DNA from: Daedaleopsis sinensis
Taxonomy: Eukaryota > Basidiomycota > Agaricomycetes > Polyporales > Polyporaceae
Length of the DNA: 64,000 nt
Assembly: GCA_033807695.1 (NCBI GenBank)
Contig: CM066304.1
Span: forward strand, 744,001-808,000
Direction: 5' to 3'
The position numbers were made by a program, and so were the translations under genes. Of the stretch, positions 28,877 through 49,775 are shown piece after piece; the first letter of the stretch is position 1; each line of letters begins with the position of its first letter. The notes under the pieces are model-generated. The model saw nothing but the letters and a program-made list of their open reading frames with translations, was not told the DNA's origin and ran no database searches.

Positions 28877-29670
28877 GTGAGCGGCTCGCCTCGGTTGTCG
28901 CACGTAATTGACGTCCATATTGCTGCGCGAAGTGACGCTTGCATCGCGGACGACGCAAATCGGAGCGGACTTGCTTCTCATTGTCGTCACATGGCGAAGT
29001 ATACCTAGACGTAAGGAGTCGCTACAATCTGGGCCATCCTTCGCTGGTGTGCTCTTCCGTGACGGTGAGTACATACCAAAACAGTGTGACATTTGTCATG
29101 ATGACCGATCATTCACGACGTGGGGTTTGTGTCAGGTATCATGTACTCGTCTTGTTCTTGCTGAACGTACTGCACCTCGTGCTCACGTTGGTCTCGGTGA
29201 GCTCCCAAAAGGTCGTACACACCACGAATGTGTCGCTCATTCAAATTGCAGCTCGTCGATCCGCTGACCCCCGTGAGCGACGTAACAGTCTTTGCTCACC
29301 CGTACGTCTGCCCTCGTCCCACAATTCCTGCTGCGCGTGCCTGCGAGGGCTGACGCAGTCGATTGCGGACAGCCTCAACGCAATGCTGGTCTCGCGCTTC
29401 CTCCTGGACCTGCAGCACGCAAACCACAACGCACTCCACCTCGAGACAAGTACCGAGAGCGAGATCGACCGGGCAGGGGACATCGGAGCAGATGGGAACC
29501 GCAGGCACGAGTCGCTCGTGTTCGAGCGGGTCGTCGGCTCGATCGCGTCTTCTCTTGGTGCTGGCGTGCACGAGGATGAGGGCGATTGGGACGCAGAAAG
29601 ATACGAGGGCGCGAGCGAAGACCAGAGTGATGGCCCGGATGAGCGAAGCGAGTCTGCGCTGGGATCTGCA

Positions 29671-29678
29671 GAGAAACA
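29671..29678 (+). repeat. Left target-site duplication of the transposon
   Basis: GAGAAACA, repeated exactly at 49,695-49,702. The base before and the base after differ between the two sites, so the duplication is exactly 8 bp. Confidence 0.85.
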
Positions 29679-29685
29679 GAGATCA

Positions 29686-29731
29686 TTGGAACTATGGTGC
29701 AGAGTCCGCCGGACGTCCGCCGGACACGGAC
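29686..29731 (+). repeat. Left terminal inverted repeat
   Basis: Starts TTGGAACTATGGTGCAGAG and ends CACGGAC. It matches the reverse complement of 49,642-49,687 at 45 of 46 positions (T/C at the tenth base). Inside, the 11-bp palindrome GTCCGCCGGAC occurs twice in tandem (29,704-29,714 and 29,715-29,725), possible transposase binding sites. Confidence 0.9.
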
Positions 29732-29774
29732 CGGCGCCTATTGGATAGACGACCAAAATTTTATTAGGCGCCGG
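29731..29774. repeat. Hairpin just inside the left terminal repeat
   Basis: CCGGCGCCTA (29,731-29,740) is perfectly complementary to TAGGCGCCGG (29,765-29,774) across a 24-nt AT-rich loop. It may form a structure used in transposition, or be the trace of another small element. Confidence 0.6.
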
Positions 29775-30373
29775 CTATTATGTCCAATTGTATATGGGCG
29801 CTAATTCCCCAGTCATTATTATTTACTGCCCTACAATACGTTTACATGCTGCTTCAGCCCTCTCTCCTTGCGTAGATTCCGGACTTTTTATAGCGACCTG
29901 CTAAAATATCCGAAAGTGAGGAAACATACGCCCCCAGCGCACGACTTACAACTTGTTCGCGGCGCCGTCTGTCGTACCCGAACACGACTCGCCTTTCGGA
30001 GCGATTGCGGAAGGCTATGCAGCAGATGCGATGGTTTTTGTGACCCCCACGGAAGCGTTCCGTAATAAAACTCGGCGCCGCGTTGTAATCTGTCTGTCCT
30101 CTGCCTTAACTTTATCCAACGCTGCCACACTTACCATATCTGATCACCCACATGAAGGCCACCCTGCGCCCATGACAGATATTTTTCGCAAACTTTGTTG
30201 GCCGGCACCATAATCCTATCGAAACCCCTTACACAGTATTCCGGATCCGGATCCACTCTTCGCCCACTCCAAAATCTATGTCGGACCGTAGCAAAGTTGT
30301 TATGTATCTTGGCGGCCATGACAAGATTTTGCGTCTACCCAGGAGCAGTTCTGACACCGTCGGTTTCGTTGTT

Positions 30374-30416
30374 CTAATAGCTGCCGGAGCGTAGGCTGCG
30401 CTCCGACAGCTATTAG
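30374..30416. repeat. 18-bp stem hairpin in the left arm
   Basis: CTAATAGCTGCCGGAGCG (30,374-30,391) pairs with CGCTCCGACAGCTATTAG (30,399-30,416) with one mismatch across a 7-nt loop. It is far longer than expected by chance. Confidence 0.65.
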
Positions 30417-30770
30417 GGTATCATATATGACATATGTCGAAGGCTCGCAACCGCTCCACACACTTTTGGTCTCCCTCCGTTAATAATTGCAGAATGACAC
30501 CGTATCGAATTCTGCCTCACTAAACCTGGCCATCGGCACGGCAATATCGCAGGATATCATTCTTTGACGGAACTCTTACGCCACAAATTGCACCACCTTG
30601 GTCGTGGCCAAACTGTCGAAACAGTATCGCACTAATTCTTGATATTTCTTACCATCGTCGCAAGAGAACAAAACGTCGGAACCCCCGCGTCCTGGACGTA
30701 GACGCGCCCGACCTGCCCCCTCGTGCGCGCCGTTTCTCACTGCGCGCACCAGGCGCAAACGCAGGGCCCC

Positions 30771-31095
30771 GCGCGACCTTGACGGCACACACGCAGTGGT
30801 TTGTAGTTCGCGCGCCCCGAGAACGACTGCCCAGGGCTCCGCGCGACCTTCACGGCAGTCGCGCACGCGGAGATAAAGGCACGCAGTGGTTTGTAGTGCG
30901 TGCGCCCCGACAATGACTGCCCAGCGCCCCGCGCGACCTTGATGGCACAAGGCACGCAGTGGTTTGTAGTGCGCGCGCCCCGAGAACGACTGCCCAGGGC
31001 CCCGCGCGACCTTGACGGCACAAGGCACGCAGTGGTTTGTAGTGCGCGCGCCCCGAGAACGACTGCCCAGGGCTCCGCGCGACCTGACGGCACAG
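30771..31095 (+). repeat. Minisatellite of about 70-73 bp, four full units plus a partial one
   Basis: Units begin GCGCGACC at 30,771, 30,841, 30,931, 31,004 and 31,077. Each contains GCACGCAGTGGTTTGTAGT then CGCCCCGA and ACTGCCCAG. Three units are 70-73 bp and one is 90 bp because of a short insertion. The last is truncated and runs into a 25-bp direct duplication. Confidence 0.85.
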
Positions 31096-31144
31096 GCCTT
31101 TACCTTCGTGCGCCCGGTTGGCCTTTACCTTCGTGCGCCCGGTG
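31095..31144 (+). repeat. 25-bp direct duplication
   Basis: GGCCTTTACCTTCGTGCGCC plus five bases occurs twice in direct succession, directly after the minisatellite. Confidence 0.8.
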
Positions 31145-31372
31145 GCATACCATATCCACCTCGATTTCGCCTGCCTGCCCACCACGCACGCATTCGTGCA
31201 CGTCGTCGAGCAGAGCACAAATTTGATGATGGTGTCATCACGGACCGGACGGTAACTGATTTCCTGCCGCAGACTAAATCGTGTGCTCGCCGCCTGGCGA
31301 CGCCCATTGGCCATTGCTACCCGCGCCAAGGTTGGTGCGCGCACATACAATAATGGGTTACAGAATCAATAG

Positions 31373-32441
31373 CTACCCCTCCACGACGATGTCGCCTCCT
31401 TCACAGGACTCCTCGTCATCCAAGGACTCGGGGGCCTGGGCAAGCAGGTGCACAGCGCGCATCTTGAAGCTCACACCTTGGGCTCCATCGAGATTGATAC
31501 CGCTCGCCACGTACACTGCGTCATATATCTCGAGGTAGTCGAGGGAGCGTACGCGCTTTCTGTCTGTGGGCTCTGGGTGGATCGTGTCGTAGGCGTCATA
31601 GACGATGCGCATCTGTGGAGAGCAAATGTTGATCAGTTTCCAAAACAACATGGGGCCTCTTAGCTCACCTGCCTGCCCGTGGCGGTTCTCTTCTGGGCAT
31701 GGAAACATTCAATTGTGTCCTCTGAGAATCGTAGTCAGCATAGGTTCTCACCTTACAGCCCGTACAACTCACGACCGGGGTTCAAGTGTTGGAGAAGGTC
31801 AGCGAGTGCCTGACGGTCGACTTCGCGCGCAATTGAGACGTCCAGATAGTGGTCGGTCCACGATCTCACCGTGCGCTCATTGCCCAGCCGGGCAACGTAC
31901 CCTACGACGACGAGCTTCACGACTTGCCCGCGGATGCACAAGCGGCCTCGGTCGTCCCATTCGGTCTGGTCTAACGGTAGCTTGCTCAACGGGTACGTCG
32001 CTTCGTCCACCAGGACACGCGTCGTGTAACGTCGGATACGTCTGTAACGCATTATGAGAGGCGCTAGACGGAGGGGCGCATATGACTCACTCGATGATTT
32101 TGTCCGGCACCCATACATCGGCAACGATGTCATCCATCATCTCAGCAGCATCCAGATGTCCCGAGTTCGGCACGTCCAAGGTGTCGAGGGAAGCCTGCTC
32201 AGACTGAGATGGTAGTTCATTCATTCAGGTGCGGTTGTCAGTGGTGCGTCGACGACACTCAGGATGATGTGTGACATACTTGGTTCTCTCCGCTGGGCTC
32301 TAACACTACAGCGTCGTTGGTAGGGCGGACTTGCGCCTCAGACATGTGTACGTCGACGGACGCGTTCGACGGAAGCGTGGGGGGGGAGATGGTGTCTCCC
32401 ATTCTCGAAACGTTGGGGGAGGGAGAGTCGTCGCGGGGCAT
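31373..32441 (-). CDS. Transposon gene A: unknown protein, paralogue of gene B
   Basis: Five exons: 32441-32280, 32203-32091, 32041-31773, 31721-31669, 31612-31373; 278 aa, continuous frame. A disordered N-terminus (MPRDDSPSPNVSRMGDTISP) is followed by a folded region: YPLSKLPLDQTEWDD, GRLCIRGQVVKLVVVGYVAR, TDHYLDVSIAREVDRQALAD, DAVYVASGINLDGAQGVSF and MRAVHLLAQ. The beta-rich IRGQVVKLVVVGYVA stretch could be OB-like, but this is only a guess. Gene B in the same element has the same layout and intron phases. No family is recognised. It lies next to the left-arm repeats, convergent to nothing. Confidence 0.75.
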
Positions 32442-33584
32442 GGATGGAAGCCTTCGCCATCCTCCAGGACGTCACCATATTGTTTGGTAATCATTGCGAA
32501 CAGTCTCGAAAGGGAGTTCGTGAGTTTCACCCGTCCACGGCGGATATTATTCTTAGTGGTCTTGCCATCTTTCGGCTGAATTGAATGTTGCCGATGGTGG
32601 TGGTGGAGGTGTGTGTTTGGCGCCGTTCTAGATGTGGCTTTCATGTGACGTAACCCTTCTGGGCGTTTCACGCAGTCTGGTCAGCGCTCAGTGTGTGCGG
32701 TCCACTCAACGTTGTATCCTCCTGCTTTCAGCCTATGTTCGGAACGCGCTGTGGTAAGATGCGATTCCAGTCTGGCAACCTCAAGGGCACTCAATGTAGA
32801 TCTGGCGGCGTAATGGATCGGTCATTCATACCACAACTGTCAACCACCCCGGTTGGAGGCACTGCCGTCCGCATATAGAGGGCCGCGGCTGTCCATGGGC
32901 CTATCGCCGCCACAGGTGAGTTACTAGTCTCAAATACTGGACGATCATTCCCGCCCGCGATCTGGAGCGATCATGTCGCCCCAATCGTAAGACATCCGGA
33001 ACCCAGTAAGCTGGCCGTCAGAAAACAAATTACCGTCAGCGGCCCTATCGTTCCGCAAATGAATGACACCGTCATTGTTTCGGCAGTGCACATGTGGGGC
33101 TTGCCCGCGGCCACCCGGTCATTGTCCCTGCGCTAGGGGCATTCACCGACGTGTTCGCGGCCGGAATATGTTGTGCGGAGCGGCTGTCTTGGGTAGACAT
33201 ACTTTCGCACTCGCCCGAAAATTTCTGTTCGAGCTCTAGGTCTCGTCCCTCGTCCCCTTGCGCACATGGGGGGGGTTCGTTCAGAGTCTGCTATGACTGC
33301 GCAGACCACATGCACTCCGACGGAATACCTATCATCAGTCGGTGGTTTATGGAGGGGCCTCCGTACGCACCCCTCGTGAATCAACTGCGAGGCAATGGCC
33401 GCCTTATTGATCTGTTGTACCTACTGAATTCGTTAGCAAACACCCACAAGCTTGGTTTGAGTTGATAACCTGACCTCTGCGTATCGCCGAATTATGTTCG
33501 GGTTGTGCCGATGGCCAATTACGTTGGTGGGCCATTCACCTCCGCATCCTGCATCCTCACACTCTCGGGAGACGGCGACCGCCA
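32442..33584. other. Spacer between divergent gene A and the CxC5/CxC6 gene
   Basis: The two genes point away from each other, so this 1.1 kb should hold both promoters. A minus-strand frame at 32,306-32,671 (with a His run) overlaps the 5' side of gene A and could be an alternative first exon, but no single start is clear. A plus-strand frame at 33,094-33,465 has no motif. Confidence 0.4.
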
Positions 33585-35896
33585 ATGCTACCTTTCCGTG
33601 ACATTTCCTCGCGATTGGCCGCGTGGCCCATCCTGTACGATGGCCTTCAATTCTCGCAAATCATGAAGTTCTTCGCGGTCGTGGATCGACTGTCCCCCAT
33701 GATCACGCTCACGGCTCCTCGCACAAATCGCCTCCTGCCTCCGGTTCTCAGCGCAGTCGTCCGCAGGGCCTTGTCTGAGGCCATCGAGGTCCCCGTCACG
33801 GATGTAGATCTGCTCTGGTCCGCCCTAGGAGATGTCGCTCTGGCCGCTGACTCTTCAGATCTGGTCCTGCCTTTGTCGGCTGTAGATAATGTACTCAGTG
33901 CGATCGCTCGTCAGAGCGATGTTGGTACGTTCCCCCATGCCTATTGGGGCTGCACGAACTGTATGCTTATTGTGTTCGACAGGTGCTGAGGTCATAGTAC
34001 CCCCGGTAACAACGTGCCGTAATATAGCATGCAAGGATCATGGTAAACCACTGGGAAATCGAAAATCATACCCCGTGCACCTGTTCACGATGCGTCGCGG
34101 GGTCCTGCCAGGTCGTGTTTACACTTTGTATTGTCGAGGTAACGATGTCATCAATATCGACGCACCATAACGACGCCGAAAATGAGCTCACACCTTCTCC
34201 GCAGAATGTCACACCACCTATCGGCCCAACTACTACGTGGTCAAAGCCGAGGGCCCGCACGCCATGCGTCAGTATTACGACGGGGTGCCCAAGACTTTGG
34301 AGGTGTCAGAACATGCATACTTCGACGTCGAAATCATGTCGCTGGTGCGCGCACAAATGGCAATTTCACAGTGCGATATATCTGATATTCTCAGTTCCCA
34401 TTGGAAATCGCTCTGACTGGCTTTCTCAGCTCGTCGGGGGACACCGTTGCCCGCGTGTACAATACGGGGTTAGCACCCGGTTCACAGATTCACCCCATGA
34501 CTACGGAGGATGTTTGGAATGCTTTCTACCTGCACTCGCTGCTGCTCGATGCCAACAGACGCGGCGAGGCCATGGTTCTCCCCCATGCGGGCGAACATTC
34601 TGAAAGGTTTACGACTGCGCTGTGGACTCGCAATATACGCATGGTCGGCACTGGTCAACCGCAATGGGCACACGCGTGCGAAGACTGCCAGAAGATAATT
34701 CCCAGTGAGCGCCCAGGCGAGCCATCGCGTAAGTACCCCGTTTTGCCACAGTGCATTGTAGCTTTGGATGAACTCGATTGGGATTTATGACGTTATTACA
34801 ACGACGCAGGTCGGCTGTCAGCCTGCGTGATGGATGGCGTCACACTAGGCCATCCTCGATGCGCCATGGACCACTGCTTAGGACGTTTGGACTCCCCGCG
34901 GGATCGCTTTTGCGCCACCCACCGCGAACAAGAGAAGCATTGTGCGGTGGTGGGTTGCGAACGCCAATGTATCCCGCCCGGTCGGACATGCGACATCCCT
35001 GCACATCGCGATCTCGAGGTATCGAGGCGCATTCGCGGACAGGCAATGAAAAGGCTGAAGAAGCGCGAACGAGGGCATCAAATATCTTCCGCCGTTCGAG
35101 GGCGCGCGGAAGCGAGCGCATTGGCGGAGGATATTCTTGACGATCCGGATATAGCGTCCGAGCTCGGCGATGATGCGGGCTCCTTGGATGTTCACCCTCC
35201 CACACCCACTACCCACGACTCATCGACGCCCACTCCGGCGAAATTGAAAGCCCGTCTGACCCGACGGTGGACCCACAACGAACAACTTGTGGTCCGCTGT
35301 TGTGGCACGGTAATCTCCCGCGCGACATTTTACGAGGCAGAATCACCTTCGAACTGTATGGTGAGCCTTTGCCCCGCCCCCCAGAAATATCACCGTGGTT
35401 GATCTGCGTAGCGTTCGCACCTTGAGCTCATTCTGGGTTGGTCTCACAGGCTTTCCTCCGCCGGGTGTTCCCGTTGCTATTCCCTCGAGCGCAGCCCTCG
35501 TTCGTGTGGTTCGACAGCAGCTGCTTGCTTCTAAAGCACATATGGGCCATCGACGATCGTTCTTTGCCCTTCACCGGCTTCCCTGTGGATGTTTTCCACG
35601 CCACCGTGAAACACAAAGATAGCGACGCATTTTGTGCCGTCAACTGCAATCCCGTGACTTTCCCCGAGCTGATGGATGGTGAGAAGTGGGTTTTCAATTC
35701 GTCGGCATGCGAGCAGGTTAATGGGTGGTTTGGTCAGTTCCAGTCCATCGCCCGGGAGATGACCGAGGTGCATTACAATTTCTTCTTGGATGAGATGATT
35801 ATGGTGTACAACGAGTGGAAAGTTGGGGTTCTCGCTCATCGCAACAAGAAGCCGCACCTCATTCCTCTGGAGGAGCTTCGTCTCCCTCATAGGTGA
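33585..35896 (+). CDS. CxC5/CxC6 cysteine-cluster protein, probable transposase of the element
   Basis: Family known from its association with Kyakuja-Dileera-Zisupton (KDZ) transposons. Six exons: 33585-33924, 33983-34138, 34205-34344, 34395-34728, 34810-35360, 35450-35896; about 655 aa (629 if Met at 33,663 is used). CxC5: VPPVTTCRNIACKDHG and LYCRECHTTYRPNYYV. CxC6: CVMDGVTLGHPRCAMDHC, FCATHREQEKHCAVVGC and TCDIPAHRDLE. The C-terminus has FVWFDSSC (Asp about 529), FPVDVFHATVKHK (Asp about 554), FCAVNCNP and FNSSACEQVNGWFGQF (Glu about 596), which I read as a D-D-E RNase H-like core; that part is inference. All splice junctions keep frame, so the gene seems functional. It is the only gene in the element with a visible transposase-like core. 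Confidence 0.88.
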
Positions 35897-36055
35897 CCAT
35901 GTTATATATACATTTCTATTCTGGTTTGAGTTCCATTTCAGCTTCGTTTGTATCACGTGGGCAGTTATTTCATGGCGGGCCAAGATGGTATCACGCAAAT
36001 CATGAATATGACTCAGACGAGCGGTCAAATTATCGTACGTGATATCTGTCTACAA

Positions 36056-37177
36056 CTACATATCTTCCCCCTTTCGTGCAACGAGATGTAAGGCCTGCAT
36101 GTCGAACCGGATATCCCCTACGTAATCGCGCTTGATATGTAACTTGGCCATGGCAATATCCCCACATCGAATATGTGTAAAGTCCACTCGGCATGCGTGA
36201 CTAGCTTCCACCGGTTGAATTCGCTCCGTCGAGTTGTAGCATGCCAAGGCCTGGGTTTGGGGTAAGCGAATGAAGGAGCCTAGCCCGGAAAGATCGTGAT
36301 AGCGTGCTGATAATGGAACTCACACCGTCGTGCGAGTTGAAAGCACATCGCATTTCCAGCCCAGCAGGTATCGCCTCTGCGTCATCGTTCAGTGACAGCA
36401 TTAATTATAGAGTAATTGGAGCGGGGTGCGTACGACGAGGTGCCAGTCGACTGATCATGTCTTGCACTGTTCGCACATCGGCATCTTGCACCGGGTCGGC
36501 AGCGACGTAGTATTCGGGGAAATGATCAAGGGCCGCAATGTGCTGTTTCTGACTGACCACAAACACGGCCGCGACTGTGATGACCTGCTCGTTGAACACC
36601 AGTAGATCTGACTTCCACATGGCCCTTCTCCATGGGACTCGGCTCAGTGCGAACGTCGCATTGCCAGGGGAGGTGATTTTGAGAAATCGTTGGATTCGAC
36701 TGGCAGTGGATTTCATGAACTACGTCAGCCAGTTGGCCACATTCAGGCGGCCGTGCAACACACAGAGCGTACCTCTTCGTTCGCGCGGAGAATGTATCCC
36801 CAAGGAGTCGTTCGACATCTGGAACATCTGGCAGAGGGTAGGGCCTCGCTTGAACGATATGTCCTCGTCCATTTCGACCTTCTCGCCGGGCGTTTTCTAC
36901 AGCTTCAGCGAACATTGAGTCTGCAAACTAAGTGTCAGCATGCCAGATAATCGCAGGGGCCCAGGATCAATTAGCCGTATAGGTTATTACCCAAAGAGCG
37001 TGGCTGCGATTCGTTCGCGTTCAAGTTAGACACGCCAACGAGTCTATTAGACGCCGTACTCTTGTCATTGGCGTCTGCTTCATCTCGGTCGTCGTTCAGG
37101 TGTCCACTTTCGCGGAGGTCTTTGTTGGATGGTAGAATACCCCCACCTGAAAGCGTATTGTCGTCCTGGGTCGACAT
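36056..37177 (-). CDS. Transposon gene B: unknown protein, paralogue of gene A
   Basis: Five exons: 37177-36991, 36920-36773, 36699-36434, 36376-36324, 36250-36056; 282 aa, continuous frame. The N-terminus is polar (MSTQDDNTLSGGGILPSNKD). The folded part reads VERLLGDTFSARTK, FALSRVPWRRAMWKSDLLVF, EQVITVAAVFVV, YYVAADPVQDADVRTVQDM, and ends IRFDMQALHLVARKGEDM. Exon 3 (266 nt vs 269) and exon 4 (53 nt in both), the last three intron phases, and motifs such as LSxxP, (D/A)DxxxVxxxAxxD-like helices and (M/F)xxxAxHLxA match gene A, so they arose by duplication. It converges on the CxC5/CxC6 gene, with only 160 bp between the stops. Confidence 0.75.
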
Positions 37178-37401
37178 GATGGCTGTGATTAGGCCGCAGA
37201 GCTGGGTCGCTGCTCAGAGGAGTTCAGCCCGGGGGTGATAAATGTGGAGGAGTCGGCACCATGGGCCTGCTGAGATCATATGTAGCCAGGTACCGGGTGA
37301 GACAAGTGATTTAGCATGTCATCGGAAACCGCGGCACAGGCAAAAGGTTATTCATATAGATTCGGTTCGGACTACAACTTGTGTATGCATGTGCAATATA
37401 T

Positions 37402-40400
37402 CTACTTCGGGACCTGTATCTTGAAGTCCTTTATCATCACAGGCACCCACTGCCTCCCCATCGGTCCGGTTTGCGACGAACTCCTCTCTTGCAACCCACC
37501 CGGGCGCGCGCCATAGTCTATAGCGATCTCAGCGGTTCCAGCCCCCGAGGGATTCGAGGTCGATGCCTGCGGCACGGAACCGGAGATGACGTCTGCTTCG
37601 ATGTTGTGACGCCTGCGCTTCCGTGAACGTGCAATAAAGTTGCGGGCGCGAGCCAACGTCGAAGAGTCACTTGAATCCCCTGGTTTAGAGTGCGAGAAGA
37701 CGAGTAGTAGGGCGATGGATTTCGTCAATATGACCTCTCACATACAATGAATTATTCGTGCGCACCGTTATTGTGGGGGGCGGCGTGACCTATATTCCCG
37801 TCTGCCGCGACGCCAGCTTGTTCCGAGGTGACATGCTCTCGGATGTGATCGTCGACAGACGAAGCTTCTACTTCCGGGTCATGCGCAGCATTCACCTCGT
37901 GCCTGGTAGACTTGGGATGCGGCAGAGAGTCCCCTAGCGGATGCTCGTCCTGAGACTCGTGCTCGTCCGCTTCATCATCACCATCGGCGTCCGCTTCGGC
38001 GACCTCTACCTCTTCCCCGTCCTGGTCCTCGTCGGCGTCCTTGTCCTCGTCGGCGTCCTTGTCGGCGTCCTCGTCCTCGTCGGCGTCGGCGTCGGCGTCC
38101 GCGTCGGCGTCGGCGTCGGCGTCCGCGTCCTCGTCCGCGTCCGCGTCCGCTTCGGCGTCGGGTTCGGCATCCTCCTCGTCCGCGTCGGCGTCCTCCTCCG
38201 CGTCCGCGTCCTCCTCTTCGTCCTCGTCGTCGTCCCCGTCCTCCTCTTCGTCCTCGTCGTCGTCCCCGTCCTCCTCTTCGTCCTCGTCGTCGTCCCCGTC
38301 CTCCTCTTCGTCCTCGTCGTCGTCCCCGTCCTCGTCGTTGTCCGCGTACTCCTCCTCATCAACGTTGACAAGTCCACCTTCATAGGCCTCGCCGTCCGAA
38401 TGACGATCGTGATCGCTGGCAGCCTGGCCATGAATGGCGTCATCTCCTAACACGCTTTCGGCCTGTTCTTCGCCGTCGCCGGTGTGTCCCGCTGGTTTCG
38501 CCACCGGGCGCTGGATGGTGATGGAAGTCCCGACGCTAGCCAGCGAGTTCAGGCGCGTCGTCTGGATTGCTGCGCGGGACTGCGTTGAAAGTGAGCCAAA
38601 GAGCAAGTCAGTAAACGTCAATCAGGTATATAACAGACCGGTGCGTACCTGTGGAATAGAGCGGGCCTCTGCATTGCCCCTCCTCGCCACGGGCCGTGGT
38701 TGGGGTTTACCCTTCGCGCCCTGGCTCCCCGAATGAGCGAGTGCACGTCGGATTACTGCGACGTTGGGAGCGCGAGAAGGAATGTGTGCAGGCGGCGCGC
38801 GACTCGCCAGGCGCTGCGGATCGCCAGGTCTGTGGGTGCTTTCACCGTCGGAATGGTCTTCCCCACCTGATTCGTCCATTGCTATATGTTCTGCTGAGGG
38901 CGATCGAGTCTGTGCAGCTTGTGAGGCGGCCCGGGGTGTTTTGTTTTTCGGCTTTCGGCTTGTCGCGCGCCCGAGTATGTCGGTGATCTTCTCCCGAAAC
39001 TTGTTGACACCAAGAATCTCGTTCTTCTCGCAGAGCTTTTCGATAAGTTCTGACACACGGGGATCTGCAGACTTCATGGCGTTGTAACAATACATCGCAT
39101 CGGACATCCAATCTCGTCTCCGCCCAAGGAAGGTGCCCACAATGCCGGCGTGGAGGACGCGGCCTCGCGCGGCCGGAGCCGCTTCAGCGCCGGCGCGACC
39201 GAGACTCATGAGCTCTCCTGCGAGCTTGATCCAACGCACCAGACGTTCTGCGGGTTGGGCGGACCATTTACCACCTCCCGTCATCTCTTCTAATTCGGGC
39301 CTTTGGGAGAAGGCCCCGTTTTGCGTATCGCGCAGCCACTGCAGCAAGGCCGCGTCTTTAGCCGCCCGCGAGAATTTGAGACGTGGCTGTCTCGGAGGAC
39401 GGGGACCGCGACGACGCGCACGACGGGGGCGCTCGTCTCCGGAATCGCTCTCATCCCTGGACGAGTCGTCCTCGTCGTCTTCGGAGTGACGTGAATGTTT
39501 GGCCGCAGTCGGAACGGGTATCTGTAACGCTGCTTTAACCACCTCTGCAATCCACCATGATGAAAATGGCGCGCTCACCCTTTCCAAAATGTATGACACG
39601 GACAAGTGGGTGTCACCTAACAAAGCCGATGACCTTGCGGGGTCGAGCAAATCGACGACGATATCTTCATCTTCTCGAAAGTAATGCACCGACATGGATG
39701 CATCAACAGACGCAATGCGGCGGGTATAACGGGTCCCGTTGGCGGCCAAAGGAATGCCGAGATAAACCATACCTGCCAGAGGAGATAAGTACTACACCCA
39801 TGCCTGTATCGCTCATTCATATGCCCAACAGAGAAACTCACCGTCCATTCCGGCGACCTCGGCTATCAAACGCTTCACGAAATAGTGCGCGCGGACGACG
39901 AACCGCTGGGACCGAACATCGTACTCAATGGGAACATCGTGCAACATGTCAAGCATCGCGAGACCACCAGGGGCATGAGCGACATTGCGCACGTCTGCCC
40001 CCAGAGCCGCCACAGGCGCGATCCCATGCAGAACTTCTATCCCCGCCCAAAGACCGGCAAAACCTTGCGGCGGCACGAGATACATGTCATCGCGATCCTG
40101 TCGAGTTACTTCGATCAGGCTTACTCGAAGTCACGGGAAGTAGGTATGTACTCACTTCGACTGCTTCAGCCGCATCTAGTAGCGTTTTGTACCGCGTCAG
40201 GCCGCTGCCTGGGTGGACTGAGAGATCATGAGGCGGGGAGTACTCGTCCTCTTCCCCACGTGGCCAAGGCGACGTGGGCCGGGATTGCCATTCGTAGTCC
40301 GAGTCGATCTGCGATGGCTTCAGCTCAGACATCTCAACATCATGCCGAGGATGGTGGACATACAAATCCAGAACTCTCCAACACGCCGCGGATGAATTCG

Positions 40401-41841
40401 GAGTGTGTCGCAGGGGGCGCAAACTCCATTTCCTCGGACGGGAGCGCCTCGTCAACCGCCTCCCCGTTTTCACGTCGTTCCGCGATACGCGCGGAGCGCC
40501 GTGGCAAACCAGTGAAAAGCGGGGAGATATCTTCAGCTAGCGAGAGTTCTTCTTCATACTCGTCGACATCGATAACATGTTGGGGTAGACCGTTGTCCAC
40601 CACCGCCTGATCAAACTCCATGTTGGTTCAACACCGATGAGAAACATAGCTAGACTTACGGGTGGTTCATGTAGACCTCCTAAGAACTCGTCCGTTCGCG
40701 GGCCCGCTGAGACGAGGTCACTTTCCCCCTCTGTCGCGAGCCCACCCTGCGGACTGCGCAACGCCTGCGGGACCGTAGCACGAACCGGCCCGCTCACGCC
40801 AGCCCCAAGGCCGTACGATCGCGTCCCTCCGACAGTAGATGGGCCCGAGACGGAGGTCGGAGGGAGGTCGGGCTGGGCCGTGGGGGTGAGGAGAGGCCCG
40901 GGCAGCAACGCTGGAGATCGGACACCCTTGCGAGACGGATGCACGGCAGCGAATACGGCCTCCAAGCGGATACGATCCGAAGTTTGCATGTGGGCGGCGG
41001 GGGCCGGATTGACCTCAATGGCTTCCAACCCGCGGTATGAGCCGGCTGCCGGAGATGGGGACGATGGGGGAGACTGAATTGTGTTACTGGCGATGATTGG
41101 GCTAACGCGTTTATCAGATGGAGAATGATGAGTGTCCACATCACCGACTTACAATGTGACGACGCGGGAGATACGTCGAGGAGGGATGGGGATAGGTAAT
41201 GGGGCGGGAGGAGGAGTCCCGGGCCGCGACTGGCTAACTTCTCGCCGACAGAGTGGGACGAGCCTGGTGACCTGAACTAGTGATTAGACAGAGAATCACG
41301 ACGGAATTTTAGGAATAGCCAGACACACCATGAATGGCGAGCGATTTCCATCAGCGTTGATGTCGCGACCAGACCAACTATGGGCACGTTGGGGGCGGAC
41401 GTGGGCCCCCGCAACGCGTGGCACGTCAAAGCCGTTGGCCGATTTTGCGCGGGGGCGTGCGCCTGCTGAATGTATTGTCTTCAACCCAGCAACGTGAGTG
41501 GGGCCACCATTGTGATAACCTAGGAATCGAGGGCGGTCCCAAGGATGCGATTGAAAGCAACCATACCCATGAATGCATCAGCCGAAATGCTCTGGAGGTC
41601 GCGCGACACACATACCATGACTGAACCCCAGCGCGGCGGACGGACTGGGAGTGTTTTTCCTGGTGCCAGGGTCCAAGGCGGCGGCTTCGGAGGTTACAGG
41701 GGAAGATAGAGGGGACATTGAGCTAACCACTGAAGCTCCTACAGTGTCTATCTTACTTCCTACCCCACCCACATGTTCGGGATCAGACGCGGGCGCGCCG
41801 CTTACGGAGGAAACCTGTGAAGAGGATGGATTGTCGGACAT
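37402..41841 (-). CDS. Transposon gene C: about 1,280-aa protein with acidic repeat tail
   Basis: About ten exons, best borders: 41841-41616, about 41519-41329, 41271-41153, 41086-40660, 40615 to about 40376, about 40330-40147, about 40103-39845, about 39772-38646, about 38588-37765, about 37687-37402. It starts MSDNPSSSQVSSVSG. There are Pro/Ser-rich parts, an acidic/basic patch (DVDEYEEELSLAED, RRSARIAERRE), and a possible folded region DDMYLVPPQGFAGLWAGIEV to MVYLGIPLAANGTRYTRRI and YFREDEDIVVDLLDPA. Next come a basic region (RPRRARRRGPRPPRQPRLKF), a run of Asp/Glu with four 10-residue units (DDDEDEEEDG) and DAD repeats, and a basic NLS-like ARSRKRRRHN near the end. No family is recognised. 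Some short introns (40-44 nt) are uncertain. A DNA- or chromatin-binding role in transposition is a guess. Confidence 0.6.
38000..38345. repeat. GTC/TCC-rich coding minisatellite (acidic repeats of gene C)
   Basis: Plus-strand DNA is a run of GTCCTC/GTCGTC triplets. At about 38,212-38,331 a 30-bp unit is repeated four times; on the minus strand it encodes Asp/Glu decapeptides. The left part encodes alternating Asp-Ala. The length is likely to vary between strains. Confidence 0.75.
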
Positions 41842-41904
41842 CGACGCCCGAACGAGCTGATGCGCGGTCCCGCGGTCAATGAGGGATGCGCAGACCGGCA
41901 CAGC

Positions 41905-43892
41905 AAGCGACGTACCCTTTTATCGCGGGGCACCCGAATCCAATGGTGGCACACCCAGCTAGCAACGTGCTGGTCCACTTTCCACTCCACCTGTGCAGCG
42001 CCGCGAGGCGGCATAGGTCTCGGGGGTTTTGAGAACTTGGACCAGCGAGAGACGCGCTCCCAGTTCACGCTCAGAGCCAGAGTGTAGCCGAGGAGGGATT
42101 CACGATCGAGGAAGTTGGCTCGACGACCCAACGAGCTTCGAGAATGGATGTCTTTGATAAGTATCTATGCGCACTAGTGAGGGCCGAAGAGTATGAATGT
42201 TTCGCAATGTGAAATACGGACCCGTAGATGCCTAAGTGCCAGATTTGACCTAACAGGGTGGTCAGTGAGAAGATCTGTGCATAGCTCGAGCTAGACTCAC
42301 AAGTCGCTTGCACGTAGGGGGCAGCGCGGGGTTGGCGGCACCAACGAGGACGCGGAGGGCGAGTCCATGGCTACGAGAGGTGTCAAGAGAGCAAGGAGAA
42401 GGGCGGACCAGAGTAATCGAGACACTGAGCGCTTTACCCAACCTTACATCAATCAGGGTAAGTCGCAATCCTCCCTACTTCCGTCGGCCGGACCTGACAT
42501 CACACCGCCAGGCACGACATCGATAACTGCGAGGTGACGTGCACTGACCTGCATTCAGATGATACCAGTCCTTTGAAGAGCATAGGACGAGTGGAGAGAG
42601 TGCGAGACGGAAACAATGTGCATGCATGAGCATGACCAGGGTGAAAGCCCAATCCATACGGACAGGGAATGTCGAATGAAATGTACATGTAATTCATCTT
42701 GGACGTTGACATGAGCGTCTGTCATTCTGAACCAGGAATGGGCGCCTGAATCGGTAAATGCCGACTGATAAGCATTGTCGAAAAATTTAAGTTAAGGTTG
42801 GATCTACGGAACACCATCAATACTACCGCCCCGCCACGACAAGTGCCCAGAACCAAGCTTGTTTCAAGCACGCACAGATCATCATGCTCCCGAATGTCTC
42901 ATGGGCGTACAAGATAACATCATGTTTTCCCCTGATGATAGACTTGGAGGCGCTCGATCGCGCAAGCCTTGTCAACTCATGACTCCTACGTCCAACCTGC
43001 CGGCAGCCGCACCCCTCTACTCCCGCGTGTGTGCCCGTACCATACGGGTACCCCGTATAGTAAATGAGGGCCTGATAATGCGGAAGACATCGAGCCATTC
43101 CTGTGGATAGGATACGGGCCACGGGAGCCCGAAAAGACACGAGCACCTGGAACTGCCGATCATCAACGACCATCACCCGGGTGAGGGGGTAGTAAGGACG
43201 CTGAATGATTTACCGTCTGTGTCTCAATGTGTACCCTGTGATAAATACCGTCATCTCAGATAATGTCGCCTATGACAAATGTGCATCGTGACTCCTGGGG
43301 AGGGCGGTGGAGCAATATCCACAGGCACATGTATCACAGTTATCAACTAGGTTGATATGGGGCTTACACTATCGGCAGATAACCACAGCCTGAGCGCTTG
43401 AGCGTCTAGCTACATAGAGTTAATCAGCAAGCAAGCACTGAAACGTCATCTGAGTAAGTATGGAACAAGGACTCGTTCACCCGGACGCTGTAATGCTGCT
43501 TACCTACACCACGGTGCACTGCCAGCCGGCTGCTCACGCATCCAGGAAGGGGTGAACATCAGGTAAGATCCGCCGCAAGATGGCATGTGGACAAATATAG
43601 AACGCGTGGACATGTCGCCAATACAGGACTAAACCTTGAGGCAGTTCAACGATAACTGGCTCGTGTGATTATGTAAGTATTTCTCACTCACCCCCATATA
43701 GGTTACAGTGCAAGTACGGGCGACTCGACGCTTCACGACGAACCTCGACGGCTCCGCGGACACCATATCTGCCGCCTCGCTGAGATACCAGCGATGACCG
43801 GGACCCAGGAACTATGTACGTTACCACGCGGATTGGTCGCCGTCTAACCGCTAACATGAGCGCAGCCAAAGTCGATCACGTCCGGGTTGACA
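41905..43892. other. Transposon stretch with a possible unresolved minus-strand gene
   Basis: At about 41,910-42,470 the minus strand shows protein-like pieces separated by plausible introns: LVGAANPALPPTCKRL, IWHLGIYGSVFHIAKHSYSSAL and FLDRESLLGYTLALSVNWERVSR. I could not make one continuous model. From 42,530 to 43,890 I see no supportable gene. Confidence 0.35.
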
Positions 43893-44195
43893 ATGGAGCC
43901 TGCACTGCCAGCGAGCGTGGATGTCCCTGTGCCCACACATGTGCGTACCCCTGATCATTTGTTTTACCTTCGCCAGCCTTTAACTGATGACACATTACTC
44001 ACCTTAGGCCCCATCCACGCGGCGCAAGTTGCGGAGATCCTCAAACTGAGGAGAGAACTGCGAGATCGCGAGGCGGACCTTTTGGCGTTGGAGGTGGAAC
44101 ATGCCGCCAGAGGGCACCTCGTGTACAAGTATAAGCACTGGTACATGGCAGCGCAGAGGCGGCTCGACGATCAGCTGGAGCCGGCTGTCCGCTGA
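43893..44195 (+). CDS. Transposon ORF E: 100-aa coiled-coil-like protein
   Basis: A single open frame from an ATG (MEPALPASVDVPVPTHV) to a stop at 44,195. The middle, VAEILKLRRELRDREADLLA, then LEVEHAARGH and YKHWYMAAQRRLDDQ, has the heptad-like pattern of a coiled coil. No family is recognised; it could be a small dimeric partner of another element protein. Confidence 0.5.
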   Translation: MEPALPASVDVPVPTHVRTPDHLFYLRQPLTDDTLLTLGPIHAAQVAEILKLRRELRDREADLLALEVEHAARGHLVYKYKHWYMAAQRRLDDQLEPAVR

Positions 44196-44509
44196 AATGC
44201 GTAGTAGACTGGGGCCTCGTGACATCGCTAATGCCATCTGCGTGAATCGCTACAGCCGCCAGTGGGCCATGACCCGTGCTCGAAATCGTACTGTACAAGA
44301 CCTCAAGGTTCAAGCTTCAAGCGTCAGGTCCAGTTTAGTCAATGTCAGGGATTTTTTGAAACATCGCGGAAACACGACCGCACATGTTACCCGATGTGCC
44401 GGCCTGTGATAGTCCGCCCGTACTCTTTGCTACCCCTGCCCAGCTACAATTTTATTTACCGTCACTCATTCTCACCGCATACGCTCGCATCTCCTACGAA
44501 CTCCACAAT

Positions 44510-45371
44510 ATGGCCGCTCCCACATGGAACGAACTCCTCGACGAGTCCGGTTGGGGACCCTCCGAAGCTCCCGTCGACGACTGCAGTGAAGTTTGGGGCC
44601 AACCGTCAGGTGCAGTCAACTGGGGGACATCAAGCTATTCGCCGCCCCGCATGATCCCATGGCCTACGGAGGAGCAGATGCAGGCGGCAGTGGCCGCCGC
44701 GGCCGAACAAGTTCCTCCGGCGACGGTAGTATGCGCGCACCCCCCCCTACCACACGCCGCAGCCATTCGGCTCTTATGCGAGGATCCCCAACCGGGCGAC
44801 CGAGCCCCATGGCTACTTCCCTCCCTCGTAATACGTATCAACGCGCCAGCTGTGACTATGGACGACGGCATGGTTCTTGAAACCGTCACGGTCATTGTGC
44901 TTCTATTCAACTGTGCGTAGAGTGAGCTCACAGTGATCGCAGATATCGTTTCCGTACACCATATCCGTCGTCAACGACTGGCTGGATGGCTGCCCCATCG
45001 ATGTGAACCTTCAAGCTGTCCCCGACGACCATCGGTTGTGCTTCGAGCAGCTCACGGCGGTCCTCCGATACATCGCCGGAGAAGGGCAGCCGCTGGAGGA
45101 TCGCAGAATTGAGGAGGATTGGGGGGACTTCATCGAGTGCGCGGTGGACATCTGCGAGGATCCCGATGTCCTCGACGATCATCGGCTCTGGCGACTGCTG
45201 AGGAAGTCGACCGAATTTCTGCCGGTATGTGACACTCTTCCTGTTAGTGTGTTGAGCGCTGCTCTGAAGAGGCCGTCGTGGTCATATGGTAGACCTGGGC
45301 ATTCAGGTACCCGGAGGGGGTACCCACCCCGCCGACGCCAGGTGGAATCGGACCTTCTTGGGATGATGTGA
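44510..45371 (+). CDS. Transposon ORF G: acidic unknown protein
   Basis: It starts MAAPTWNELLDESGWGP. The first part has VAAAAEQVPPATVVCAH and ends near MDDGMVLETVTVI; an intron (donor uncertain, acceptor GATCGCAG at about 44,941) joins it to ISFPYTISVVNDWLDGCPID, then DHRLCFEQLTAVLRYIAGEG and an acidic helix (EEDWGDFIECAVDICEDPD). The C-terminal end past STEFLP is uncertain because a further intron may start there. No family is recognised. Confidence 0.5.
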
Positions 45372-45715
45372 CGTGTCTCAGCGTTGATGGCGAGGTGGAT
45401 CGACTGACGGGGGTTATAGAGGATATATATTTGTAGGCGGAGGAAGATGTATGCTCTGCGTGTAGTAGTAGTTCCGCGATTTACACATCAGTACGCCTGC
45501 TATGATACGTCCAACATTGATTGCGTGGTCTGCTACACAGCGACAGAACCTAAATGTGGCATCAATAACCTCGCGAACGTGGGACAAAGGTGCACACACT
45601 TGTCGCGTCGAGGTGAGCACGTCGACGTCCGTGGAGAGATGAATGGGATACATTGCAATGTGCAGATACGTATATTAAAGTGTGCAGGTTACAGCGCAGG
45701 GCCCAGGTATACGAT

Positions 45716-48012
45716 TTATTTGCGTAAATGAGATCGGAAACGGGACCACTCCCCCCGAGGGGTACGACCATAATCCAACCACTTGTCCACCTCCCCTGGA
45801 ACGTTCTGAGCCCGGCGATAGAACGCGATGTTATCACTGAATGTCTGTTTAACGTGTGAGTAACCAGGGAATGCTTGCGAGAACGCAGTTTTCGTATTCA
45901 TGCCCGCGTCGCGGTTGGCTTGCCAAGTGTCGAAACCGCGGGCCATGTCAACAAAGTACAGCAACGGCCATTTGCTCTTCGACGGTCCTGAAGGGGGGGG
46001 CGAGGTCGACGACGCGCCGGATGGCATGCGTGACAGGGAAGAGACACTCGACGACCTGGAACCCGATGAGGCAGGCACGTCGGGCGCGTCCGACGACGTG
46101 TGCGAAGAGTCGAGCTCGACATCGTCCCGCCGGCCTCGGGTGGAGTCGGAGTGGTCGTTTCCAGGGATGAAAGGAGACGACGGGGGTGAGAGATCGAAAG
46201 ACAAACCCATTGCTGACGAATCGCCGAGCCAGTCGACGTCTGGGAAGAGGGCAGGGAGCCGGGATGTTCGCCGTGCGTAGTTCGGATGGTCTTCGAAATT
46301 CTCGTCCAGGTCGGTGACGGCGGCGTGCTGCGCATCGGGGGCGGGTTCCTGTTCGTCATCCGAGTCTTTCCAATCAAACCGCAGAGACGAGGGTGTGTGT
46401 GAACGCGACGACCCCGACGACGGAGGGCGAGAAGGGGAGGACCATGCAGACAACGTAGGAGATGCAGGTGTCATGCGATCGCTGCCTTGAGAAGAGCTGC
46501 GCGCGCGAAACGGGGAAGTAGATCGCGACGGGGAGTTAAAGGCGAAAGTGACGTCTGCGTCGGATGCAAGACGCCGAACGGAGCGTGGGGTGTGAGGTGA
46601 AGATGGTCTACGCGCAGAGCTCTTCATGAGTACACAACGGAAAATCGATCGCGCATGACATCAAACTAACCCTGAACCATTGACCGAAGAGCCAGGGCTG
46701 GCGACCACGATGGAGCCATGGATATCCCGTTTTTGGCCGCGCGGAGGAATGCCGGGGGTGCAAGTCACCCCGAATGTGCGGAACACCAGGTCCCCACAGA
46801 CGTCCACATTGCGACGAGCCGTGGTCGCATCGCCCTCGTACCAGGTGAAGTTCTGCCAATCCCAGTAGCCGTAGTAGCCTTGATTCAACCGAAAGTGTTC
46901 GACCAGGTGAGCCGCGTCGTTGGGGCGAAACCAAGGATAGCGCGGGGCAACCACCTTGATGTGGACTGGCTCAGAGTCGTCCTGCGGATCAATCAGGATA
47001 CGGTGGACAATGAGATCACATCCACGACTCACCACTTCATACCAAGTAACACTGACAGACTTTTTGAACTCCTCGATACAATCATTCTCGGCTTGGTTAG
47101 TCTGGACGCGTTGAAGATCGGCAATGTCGTTGTTGATCAAGAACTGTTCGTACAACGGTGAGATCGACACAGAGTACGTTTTCAGATGTGGAATGCCTTC
47201 GGCCGCGGCGACACGTCGGGCACGCGGAGTGCGATGGGGTGTGCTGGGAATAGTAGGACCAACAGTGGTCCTGTGAGTGACAGTATTCGAGGCCTGAGCC
47301 GTCGGTAAAGGGGCCGCGGGGGGTTGCGGAGGTGGCGGACGCGCAGGAGCTACCTGGGGGAACGGAGGCGGCGGTACCGCGGGAGCGAGCGGAGGTGGCC
47401 GGCCCGCAGGAGCGACCGGGGCGAGCGGAGGAGGCGGGCCCGCTGGAGGGGGAGGCGGGGCAGGGGGCGGCGGAGCGGCGGCGCGGCGGCGGCGGCGGAC
47501 TGAGCGTGCAAAGTAAGCAATGGAGGACGAAGTATATGAGAGTGTACATGACGAACGGACCGTTGGGGACTACGCCGACGGCGCGACGATGAGATCGTAC
47601 GAGACAACTACGGAGGCCAGCAATTGCGCGGTGAGCGTCGGCGCAGCAGGTCTGGCAGAGACCAAACAGGCAGGCCATGTTGAGCAGCCCGTGGTGGCCG
47701 ACGGGTTGGCACAAGCGTCCAGGGCAGGCTTGCTGGGTAGTTCGCCCTGGGGCAAGGTCGGAACACCAGTTGAAGTAGGTGCATCGGGCATCTGACGGAG
47801 TTACGTTGTTGATACACTGAAGTGAAGGGGGTGAGAAGGACGAGCAACGACGAGGTGTGTTGTACATGACTTGCAATTTGATACCACAAGTCCTTATGCT
47901 CCGGGATGTTATCGCCCTTACAGAGCAGAGGGGCAGAAACCTTGTGGGCGTGGCAGTCGGGACAAGCACCCAGATGGGCGAGAGGTTCAACAGCGGGGGG
48001 TTGGAGTGCCAT
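45716..48012 (-). CDS. Transposon gene F: 701-aa protein with GRF-like Cys cluster, Pro-rich linker and unknown domain
   Basis: Four exons: 48012-47871, 47791-47561, 47499-46671, 46619-45716; the sum is 2,106 nt, exactly 701 codons plus stop. The N-terminus has ACPDCHAHKVSAPLLC then NARCTYFNWCSDL, reminiscent of a GRF zinc finger (Cx2C ... CxxFxW), followed by ACPGRLCQPVGHH and MACLFGLCQTCCADAHR. A Pro-rich stretch (APPPPAPPPPPAGPPPP) leads to a conserved-looking region: YSVSISPLYEQFLINN, FRPNDAAHLVEHFRL, YYGYWDWQNFTWYEGD, VCGDLVFRTFGVTCTPGIPP and DIHGSIVVASPG. The C-terminal 300 residues are Ser/Pro-rich and end in YFVDMARGFDTWQ and VDKWLDYG. The family is unknown. It is the gene nearest the right end. 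Confidence 0.7.
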
Positions 48013-49641
48013 GGGAGACTATCCGAGGGTGAAAAATATCGTCGCGGGTATATATATGGCGCAGATTTGAGGTCCAGTGTACGCGGGCGCCAAGAGGGGC
48101 AGGGGGCGCCGCTCGATAAGGGGGAGAGGACTGGAACGTCGTTAGGTCTCAAGAGAAGGCCACATGTGAGCGTAGACCACTGGCCGGCTGGCAGTGCGCA
48201 TCGCCGACCGGTCGGTACCGGGAGAGGACAAAATGATTGTCAAAAGGTAAGGCCTGGACGATGTCGGGGAAGTGGAGGTCATTGGAGGGTCGGGACTCGG
48301 GAGACACCCACATGGTGGACATAAATGCCCCAGTTGAACGAGCGGGAGGCCACTTATGTACAACGCTCGAGCTGTTGAGCGAGTACATCGTGATAATTGG
48401 CAGGTGCTCATTGCGCGAGCGCGTGTGCGGGCGCGCGCGCGCGCCAGGGCAAGAATACGTCGCGCGCGCGCGCGCGCGACAGACATACTAGTCCAAAGTT
48501 GAGCGAGCGGGAGGCCACTTATGTACAACGCTCGAGCTGTTGAGCGAGTACTTCGTGATAAATGGCAGGTGCTCATTGCGCGAGCGCGTGTGCGGGCGCG
48601 GCAGGGCAAGAATACGTCGCGCGCGCGTGCGACAGACATACTAGTCCAATGCTGCGTGAGACGCGCTACGCGGTAGCAGTGTCGAACTGCTGTGATGAAT
48701 GGAGCAACGCTATCAACGCATAGGAGGCTACTCATCTGAAAGTGGCTCACGATGACTGACCTGGAACATGACGCCTGTCGGGGTGGGCGTGTGCGATGGG
48801 ATTGAGTACAAGTGTCGGGGTCGTGACTGATTGGCGGATTCTGGTGTGCGTGGATGATCAAGTTGCCACCGTTGAAGGAGACTTGCCGAAGAATATGGGG
48901 AACATACGGCCTGGCAGTACGCTGGGTAAGTCAATGTGAATGATGCTGAGGGCAATCTAACAGCCCTTTGGGTTGGATTGGGCACAAGGAGCAAGAAGGA
49001 TATACTATGTTCATTGAGAGTCGCGGCGTGGTTTCTCTACGCATGGACGGGCAGAGCTCAGGTGGCGACGACAATGGTGAACGTAGGGACATGGTGATGA
49101 ATATGAGAAGGGATTTATGCGCGGGTATCTGGTGTGGCATTTAAGTTGGGGGAAGGGTGGATAATCATTGTCGGCGGCGTCACATTCGCTATGGAAAAGT
49201 GTTGTACTTAAGTTGTCGGAACGGCTACGAAGAAACCGAACATGTAAGTCAGATTTCGTCGGAGAGACTCCCGCTCTTTGTCATACGTGGACTTTTTGAG
49301 TGAACGACTCCGAACGTAAAATAAATGCGCAGCGGAAGGCGGAGCTGTCCAGAAAGAAGGCGAAGGTCAGGAGTGCGGACGGGCTGGAAGAAAGATAGGA
49401 CAAGGAGAACGGTGCCCGAGGTGAACTATCAGTTGCGACGGTTTGCAGAACAGTCGGTTGCGGTTGCGATGGTTGGCAAAACAGTGGGTGGAATCAGAAG
49501 TAGGGAGCAAAGGAGTCGGAGCAGTGAAGAAAAGTTACTGAGCGCCGTAGCGATAGTGGGGGGGGAAAGAGAAAATGAGCGGAGGAGGGGGAGGGGCGTC
49601 AGATGAGGAGGAACGTCACGTGGACACGCTGATGCGTCATA
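48013..49641. other. Non-coding right arm of the transposon
   Basis: Holds the tandem duplication at 48,332-48,649 and purine-rich DNA at 49,325-49,610. No gene is supported; the open frames on both strands follow the repeats or the purine bias. Confidence 0.45.
48332..48649 (+). repeat. Tandem duplication of about 160 bp with CG dinucleotide runs
   Basis: Unit 1 (48,332-48,496, 165 bp) and unit 2 (48,497-48,649, 153 bp) share AGTTGAxCGAGCGGGAGGCC, CGCTCGAGCTGTTGAGCGAG and an end GACAGACATACTAGTCCAA. They differ mainly in the lengths of two (CG)n runs, with up to eight CG in a row, sequence that can adopt Z-DNA. Confidence 0.85.
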
Positions 49642-49687
49642 GTCCGTGTCCGGCGGACGTCCGGCGGACTCTGCACCGTAGTTCCAA
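49642..49687 (-). repeat. Right terminal inverted repeat
   Basis: The reverse complement starts TTGGAACTACGGTGCAGAG and ends CACGGAC, matching the left repeat except for one base. It contains the same doubled 11-bp palindrome. Seven further bases, poorly matched to the left end, separate it from the target-site duplication. Confidence 0.9.
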
Positions 49688-49694
49688 CCTTCTG

Positions 49695-49702
49695 GAGAAA
49701 CA
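49695..49702 (+). repeat. Right target-site duplication of the transposon
   Basis: GAGAAACA, identical to 29,671-29,678. Confidence 0.85.
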
Positions 49703-49775
49703 AGGTGAATGTGGCGGAGGTGCCGAGGTAGAGCCGGCTGCCTTTGGTGTTATGGAGGAGGCTCGTACGGGATGA
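49703..49775 (+). pseudogene. Detached 3' end of DUF6533 copy 2
   Basis: Read in the same frame relative to GAGAAACA as the left half, this gives QGECGGGAEVEPAAFGVM then EEARTG and a TGA stop at 49,773-49,775. A polar C-terminal tail of this kind is seen in the other two copies. It is cut from its promoter and first exons by 20 kb. Confidence 0.75.

What the first reader, a model, noticed from the sequence alone, without database searches (positions are those of the whole stretch)
29671..49702. Complete 20-kb DNA transposon with matching TIRs and an 8-bp target duplication
Seen: the 46-bp end repeats match at 45 of 46 positions in inverted orientation 20 kb apart, and GAGAAACA flanks both sides. 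The flanks are halves of one exon. Known: KDZ/Zisupton transposons make 8-bp duplications and associate with CxC cysteine-cluster proteins. Inferred: this is a full-length, recently moved, cargo-carrying KDZ-related element with at least seven genes, unusually large for a cut-and-paste transposon.
Basis: partly seen in the sequence, partly recalled or inferred. Interest (0 to 1): 0.92.

Follow-up and report, generated by a model that had tools for sequence, protein, structure and literature searches.

The report
20-kb multi-gene mushroom DNA transposon
A complete-looking 20-kb jumping element sits in what is probably a bracket-fungus genome, cut into the end of a gene, and it seems to belong to a family in which a little-studied zinc-cluster protein is the enzyme that moves the DNA and other proteins of unknown function travel with it.

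Summary
The element is window 29679-49694 (20,016 bp), with terminal inverted repeats and a perfect 8-bp target duplication in a gene's last coding stretch; joining the flanks gives one open frame. A collinear copy on C11 (15,883 bp) ends at the homologous bases and has its own 8-bp duplication. Two smaller relatives also have 8-bp duplications.

The CxC5/CxC6 protein is most likely the transposase: a 41%-identical relative is modelled with a DDE-recombinase-like fold and conserved D, D, E. Pfam's KDZ domain matches 0 of 33 relatives; similarity to KDZ is only suggestive.

Much of the interior is not random cargo: genes B and C lie beside the transposase at 8 of its 9 closest loci and show purifying selection. 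Two such loci on different contigs are 99.7% identical over 3.2 kb.

Verdict: a real, new variant of KDZ-like DNA transposons. 'Recently moved' is not shown for this copy, nor are seven genes (four are supported).

The parts
29671..29678 (.). left target-site duplication GAGAAACA
   Evidence: abuts the end fixed by the C11 copy
29679..49694 (+). transposon, 20,016 bp
   Evidence: ends fixed by alignment to C11:3041297-3057179
29679..29731 (+). left terminal inverted repeat (53 bp; inner 46 bp 45/46, outer 7 bp 3/7)
49642..49694 (-). right terminal inverted repeat
49695..49702 (.). right target-site duplication GAGAAACA
33585..35896 (+). gene T, CxC5/CxC6 transposase, 652 aa, six exons (conceptual splice), no in-frame stop; candidate catalytic residues D329, D526, E592 (D551 is conserved too)
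   Evidence: splice model mirrored in the C11 copy, 69% aa identity; CxC5 1e-30, CxC6 9.2e-22; residues located
37752..40627 (-). gene B, at least about 670 aa, acidic C-terminus; exon borders approximate
   Evidence: conserved in C11; recurs with T; core pN 0.28, pS 0.74 over 139 codons
45716..48012 (-). gene C, about 670 aa, cysteine-rich N-terminus, proline-rich middle, conserved C-terminal part; exon borders approximate
   Evidence: four exon pieces pN 0.18-0.34, pS 0.68-0.71
31373..32136 (-). gene L, upstream of T on the opposite strand (conserved exon 31373-31708; the rest tentative)
   Evidence: only other match in the assembly is C6:4332462 (E 3.0e-5, 38% over 65 aa), about 3 kb upstream of another CxC6 gene, same layout
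43860..45371 (+). tentative gene D: open frames; the frame tested (44360-44920) has no other match in the assembly, the joined frames none in Pfam; no collinear match in the C11 copy
41910..42167 (-). short stretch conserved in the C11 copy (44% aa), gene not resolved
28936..29678 (+). left part of the interrupted host coding frame; in the present sequence it runs through the repeat and stops at 29746-29748
49703..49775 (+). right part of the interrupted host coding frame (stop TGA 49773-49775)

Best explanation
It is an intact-looking, probably autonomous DNA transposon of a CxC5/CxC6 family. The CxC5/CxC6 protein is the transposase: zinc clusters (binding the ends or chromatin; inferred) and a DDE catalytic core of the RNase-H-like fold with CxC6 inserted after the first aspartate. 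It excises or copies the element and joins it to target DNA with an 8-bp stagger, which after repair gives the duplication (duplications shown at four copies; chemistry inferred). Genes B and C are co-inherited parts of the element, most likely accessory transposition or anti-silencing proteins (co-inheritance and constraint are shown, the role is inferred). The family is KDZ-like, probably a divergent branch of KDZ or its sister.
Against: No activity, excision or expression was measured. The fold was modelled for a relative, not the window protein; Foldseek alone gave nothing better than E 0.8, and VIA-align only re-aligns Foldseek's own candidates. The E is replaced by K in 1 of 33 rows (P0041), and D524 is as invariant as D496, so the triad is not certain. 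hhalign to KDZ: 3% probability, E 0.015, whole profile; 12%, E 0.0026, C-terminal part. 5 of 14 C matches (window query) and 4 of 17 (small-element query) have no T match within 15 kb. Two of 19 CxC6 matches have no C match and one, a fragment on C12, has it on the wrong side. C proteins of large and small elements match each other weakly (BLASTP 3e-4 and 0.02, two collinear stretches). B and C were not found outside this assembly (word-limited). The end pattern was not found beside the other large loci.
Confidence: 0.78

Rival explanations
1. An ordinary KDZ transposon that has captured host genes: B, C and the rest are passenger cargo and the element belongs inside the known KDZ superfamily.
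For: 8-bp duplications and large size as in Cryptococcus KDZ1 (about 11 kb); motif order YD..C, FH..H..C, E, REM..LD resembles KDZ; 9 of 31 C-type matches lie away from T; left arm and middle differ between the window and C11 copies.
Against: PF18758 matches 0 of 33 relatives; B and C recur with one branch of T, mostly in one layout, and show purifying selection.
Confidence: 0.15
2. A non-autonomous or dead relic moved by another transposase, for example one of the many KDZ genes of this genome.
For: 175 PF18758 matches in the assembly; only two copies with these exact ends found.
Against: T is open through six exons in both large copies, under strong purifying selection.
Confidence: 0.06
3. 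CxC5/CxC6 units are spread with the help of Copia retrotransposons, as proposed for the Pleurotus ostreatus MSH4 insert (PMC7641404).
For: Co-localisation reported in that paper.
Against: Here the ends are inverted, with no direct repeat joining the two ends, exact 8-bp duplications at 4 of 4 copies read, and a DDE-like fold in the protein itself.
Confidence: 0.02
4. A small T element enlarged by later nested insertions, so that the 20-kb unit does not move as one.
For: Small T elements of 5.4 and 6.5 kb exist; tandem repeats at 30762-31094 and 48332-48660.
Against: The 15.9-kb C11 copy is collinear from end to end over the conserved genes, with its own duplication.
Confidence: 0.04

Closest known systems
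KDZ1 of Cryptococcus neoformans (KDZ superfamily; PMC12810828, passages seen)
   Same: Large element with terminal inverted repeats and 8-bp duplications; transposase with a zinc-chelating CxC domain
   Different: About 11 kb, 241-bp repeats, CxC1 plus KDZ domain; here 20 kb, about 53-bp repeats, CxC5/CxC6, no PF18758 match, genes B and C (whether KDZ1 has such genes was not looked at)
Zisupton / Dileera (KDZ; PMC12730594, abstract and three sections seen)
   Same: 8-bp target duplications
   Different: Kyakuja in the same paper has 7-bp duplications and no TIRs; no TET/JBP match among the window frames scanned with Pfam
CxC5/CxC6 insert in poMSH4 of sporeless Pleurotus ostreatus (PMC7641404, passages and one section seen)
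   Same: CxC5/CxC6 protein of similar length (739 and 660 aa), multi-copy, inserted in a gene; 6,792 bp, near the size of the small elements here
   Different: Authors tied it to Copia retrotransposons; the main text has no hit for 'inverted repeat' or 'target site'
DNA transposons with accessory proteins such as MuDR or En/Spm (recalled)
   Same: Transposase plus conserved accessory proteins
   Different: No sequence relation tested

Membership tests
TIR DNA transposon | terminal inverted repeats abutting a target duplication | tested here: met
TIR DNA transposon | encoded protein with a DDE-type RNase-H-like core | tested here: met
   by model of a 41%-identical relative and conserved D, D, E (E absent in 1 of 33 rows); catalysis itself not testable here
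KDZ superfamily | KDZ domain PF18758 | tested here: not met
   0 of 33 relatives (limit E 10, though HMMER's filters drop most weak matches); window and C11 proteins match CxC5 and CxC6 only
KDZ superfamily | profile similarity of the catalytic core | tested here: inconclusive
   hhalign E 0.0026-0.015, probability 3-12%; score 25.1 against a best of 21.8 in 50 column shuffles and 20.1 reversed
KDZ superfamily | 8-bp target duplication (Zisupton, Dileera, KDZ1) | tested here: met
   4 of 4 copies with both ends read
KDZ superfamily | CxC zinc module in the transposase | tested here: met
   CxC5 and CxC6
hAT | hAT transposase or dimerisation domain (8-bp duplications also) | tested here: not met
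   no hAT family among the Pfam matches of the spliced transposase
Starship | tyrosine-recombinase captain gene | tested here: inconclusive
   no such match among the window frames scanned, mostly single exons
Copia retrotransposon | direct long terminal repeats | tested here: not met
   end repeats are inverted; no direct-repeat family joins the two ends

The most novel reading that the evidence does not exclude
CxC5/CxC6 elements form a DNA-transposon superfamily of their own, sister to KDZ, whose large branch uses a multi-protein machine (transposase T plus B and C) and moves 16-20 kb units; many proteins now named 'cysteine cluster associated with KDZ' are its transposases.
Probability: 0.35. 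Interest if true: 0.78.

Novelty: new variant of a known kind. Interest (0 to 1): 0.62.

Why it matters
CxC5/CxC6 genes can be numerous in mushroom-forming fungi (44 copies in one Pleurotus genome according to PMC7641404) but are named only for an association with KDZ transposases, and that paper found no KDZ gene near them. Evidence that the protein carries the catalytic core itself, inside bounded elements with 8-bp duplications, gives these genes a likely function, makes the origin of the commercial sporeless-oyster-mushroom mutation directly testable, and adds two conserved proteins of unknown function to study in transposition or silencing.

Tried and rejected
Searches for B and C in the large protein database gave no hit at E 0.001; only about 8,000 word-sharing candidates were scored each time and the queries hold low-complexity stretches, so this says little. 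A single-sequence model of the small-element C protein was meaningless (pLDDT 34). The plasmid collection, not a place for fungal genes, gave nothing. The PDB by sequence gave nothing up to E 1. Foldseek alone was not significant. A shorter end pattern with up to 3 mismatches gave 34 places against 22 for the control; none of the added ones lies beside the other CxC6, B or C matches, by eye. Four further end-like places (C4:713458, C4:2319923, C7:100146, C12:375584) showed no tblastx match to the two large elements within the 3-kb loci held. Pfam gave no family for genes B, C, D and L above its cut-offs. Tyrosine-recombinase, hAT and LTR readings were considered and set aside (see membership test).

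Literature: six searches (some searches listed 20 of 24, 65 and 27 papers) showed one primary study of CxC5/CxC6 genes, PMC7641404; PMC12568894 cites it (passages seen). I found no paper in those listings that calls CxC5/CxC6 proteins transposases, but unlisted papers were not seen. The founding KDZ paper (Iyer et al. 2014) is not held and is known here only through citations and recall, so it may already have proposed this.
Full report
Observation. The window lies in an unnamed 51.6-Mb, 24-contig assembly at C5:744001-808000. The nearest named homologues of the transposase are mostly from polypore fungi (Lentinus, Earliella, Polyporus, Ganoderma), so the host is probably a polypore. The 46-bp arms pair at 45 of 46 and GAGAAACA lies on both sides. 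The arms start 7 bp inside the duplications, which would leave the true ends in doubt; the second copy removes the doubt.

Second copy. A DNA search with the first 20,000 bases of the element gave 45 matches in the assembly, seven of them collinear on C11. That region was fetched. Its alignment to the window starts at exactly 29679 and ends at exactly 49694, and the C11 unit (3041297-3057179, 15,883 bp) is flanked by CATTTGCT on both sides. In both copies the outermost base is G at the left end and C (read inward) at the right end.

Host gene. The left flank is the end of a coding frame with paralogues at about 18950-19450 (+) and 5600-6100 (-). Joining the flanks gives ...SALGSAEKQGECGGGAEVEPAAFGVMEEARTG-stop. 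In the present sequence the frame runs through the inverted repeat and stops at 29746-29748, so the insertion replaces only a short tail. No Pfam family was found for the frame 28936-29748.

Transposase. Six exons give 652 aa in the window and 664 aa in C11, 69% identical, without stops. Pfam finds CxC5 (115-233) and CxC6 (327-390) and nothing else. Of 44 database relatives 33 were aligned; 11 were left out, some short and some redundant. The tool's invariant columns include D317, D496 and D524 (P0020 numbering); E565 is conserved at 90% or more, with K in P0041. The model of P0020 is confident. Its strands carrying D317 and next to D496 and the helix carrying E565 follow the order expected of a DDE enzyme, with CxC6 after the first D; this is read from the secondary structure, not from a superposition, and D524 cannot be excluded as a metal ligand. 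The 50 VIA-align rows shown are DDE-type transposases and retroviral integrases, over residues 300-622, while Foldseek by itself gave E 0.8 and above; a shared fold is not proof of function.

KDZ or not. PF18758 matches 0 of 33 relatives. Eleven KDZ fragments from the same assembly (13 fetched, the two full-length ones with stops left out) compared by hhalign give 3% probability with the whole profile and 12%, E 0.0026, with the C-terminal part (one row, P0038, dropped), above all 50 column shuffles and the reversed control. In the hhalign alignments YD..C, FH..H..C and REM..LD line up; the E lines up only approximately. I call it KDZ-like, membership open.

Other elements. The assembly has 19 CxC6 matches, one a fragment. 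Two more loci were held in full: C5:1909611-1916131 (6,521 bp, AAACAATG) and C3:1758268-1763653 (5,386 bp, GAGAGAAG). Their ends form, by eye, an imperfect inverted repeat with no obvious likeness to that of the window. So all 4 copies with both ends read have exact 8-bp duplications.

Conserved companions. Gene B (window 38622-39791, minus) has 8 further matches and gene C (46661-47569, minus) 13. They lie 3.8-5.5 kb and 8.9-12 kb downstream of CxC6 on the opposite strand at the window, C11, C4:3861872, C5:2830358, C9 and C10:55638; at C4:2149824 T is inverted. At C1 no CxC6 match was found, but the last T exon is present with B and C in the same layout. Of 9 T-exon matches at >=53% identity 8 have B and C (C6 has neither); of 8 at <=50%, 0 have B (with 45, 46). 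The small elements carry a different minus-strand gene whose zinc cluster and C-terminal part match gene C weakly; it lies beside 9 CxC6 loci. Against a strict link: 5 of 14 C matches with the window query (two of them one locus) and 4 of 17 with the small-element query have no T match within 15 kb. Gene L's only other match (E 3.0e-5) lies about 3 kb upstream of the CxC6 gene at C6, in the same layout. All counts are of matches that the tool could see exon by exon.

Constraint and age. Between the window and C11, T has pN 0.19 and pS 0.80; four C pieces pN 0.18-0.34 and pS 0.68-0.71; the B core pN 0.28 and pS 0.74 (my own Nei-Gojobori script). Synonymous sites are saturated or nearly so; these copies parted long ago and their proteins stayed constrained. 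The C4 and C5 T loci are 99.7% identical over 3,195 bp (8 mismatches, 1 gap), so close copies of this branch arose recently; whether by transposition or by duplication was not tested. The age of the window insertion is unknown.

Against the literature. KDZ1 of Cryptococcus is about 11 kb with 241-bp TIRs and 8-bp duplications and has been seen to move (PMC12810828, passages); Zisupton and a Dileera family make 8-bp and Kyakuja 7-bp duplications (PMC12730594, sections). Large KDZ-type elements are therefore known. The CxC5/CxC6 insert in Pleurotus MSH4 was ascribed to a Copia association (PMC7641404). What is added here is a bounded CxC5/CxC6 element whose own protein has a DDE-like core, two architectures, and conserved companions.

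Noticed in passing
G000 C7:1872734 and C7:1879266 (L015, L016): Two small CxC5/CxC6 loci 6.5 kb apart, identical over 3,115 bp; the second starts directly at what looks like the right end of the first (head to tail).
   Followed up: partly
G000 C8:253319 and C8:259766 (L017, L018): Two CxC6 loci identical over 3,198 bp, about 85 bases of left flank included, suggesting a duplication of the region rather than two insertions.
   Followed up: partly
L068, L069, L070 (C4:2319923, C7:100146, C12:375584): Three places share an end like this element's repeat (3 mismatches) and about 94-97% identical inner sequence, a possible separate subfamily; the other ends were not read.
   Followed up: partly
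C5:1909611-1916131, element bases 2899-4394 (minus): A further small-element gene with a weak GRF-like zinc-ribbon match (E 0.015, below cut-off) and acidic motifs such as VIDLTLDDD that resemble SUMO-interaction motifs (recalled).
   Followed up: no
G000 C5:2333465, C7:2219333, C7:2194182, C9:2667279: Gene C matches without a CxC6 or T-exon match nearby: solo or decayed elements, or host-resident relatives.
   Followed up: no
whole assembly: 175 matches to the KDZ transposase domain (not all listed); by eye none of the listed ones overlaps a CxC6 gene.
   Followed up: no
window 30762-31094 and 48332-48660: Tandem repeats inside both arms of the element (73-bp and about 165-bp units).
   Followed up: no
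window 5600-6100 (-), 17697-19233 (+), 28176-29576 (+): Related stretches of a paralogous gene family, one member of which is the target of the insertion.
   Followed up: partly
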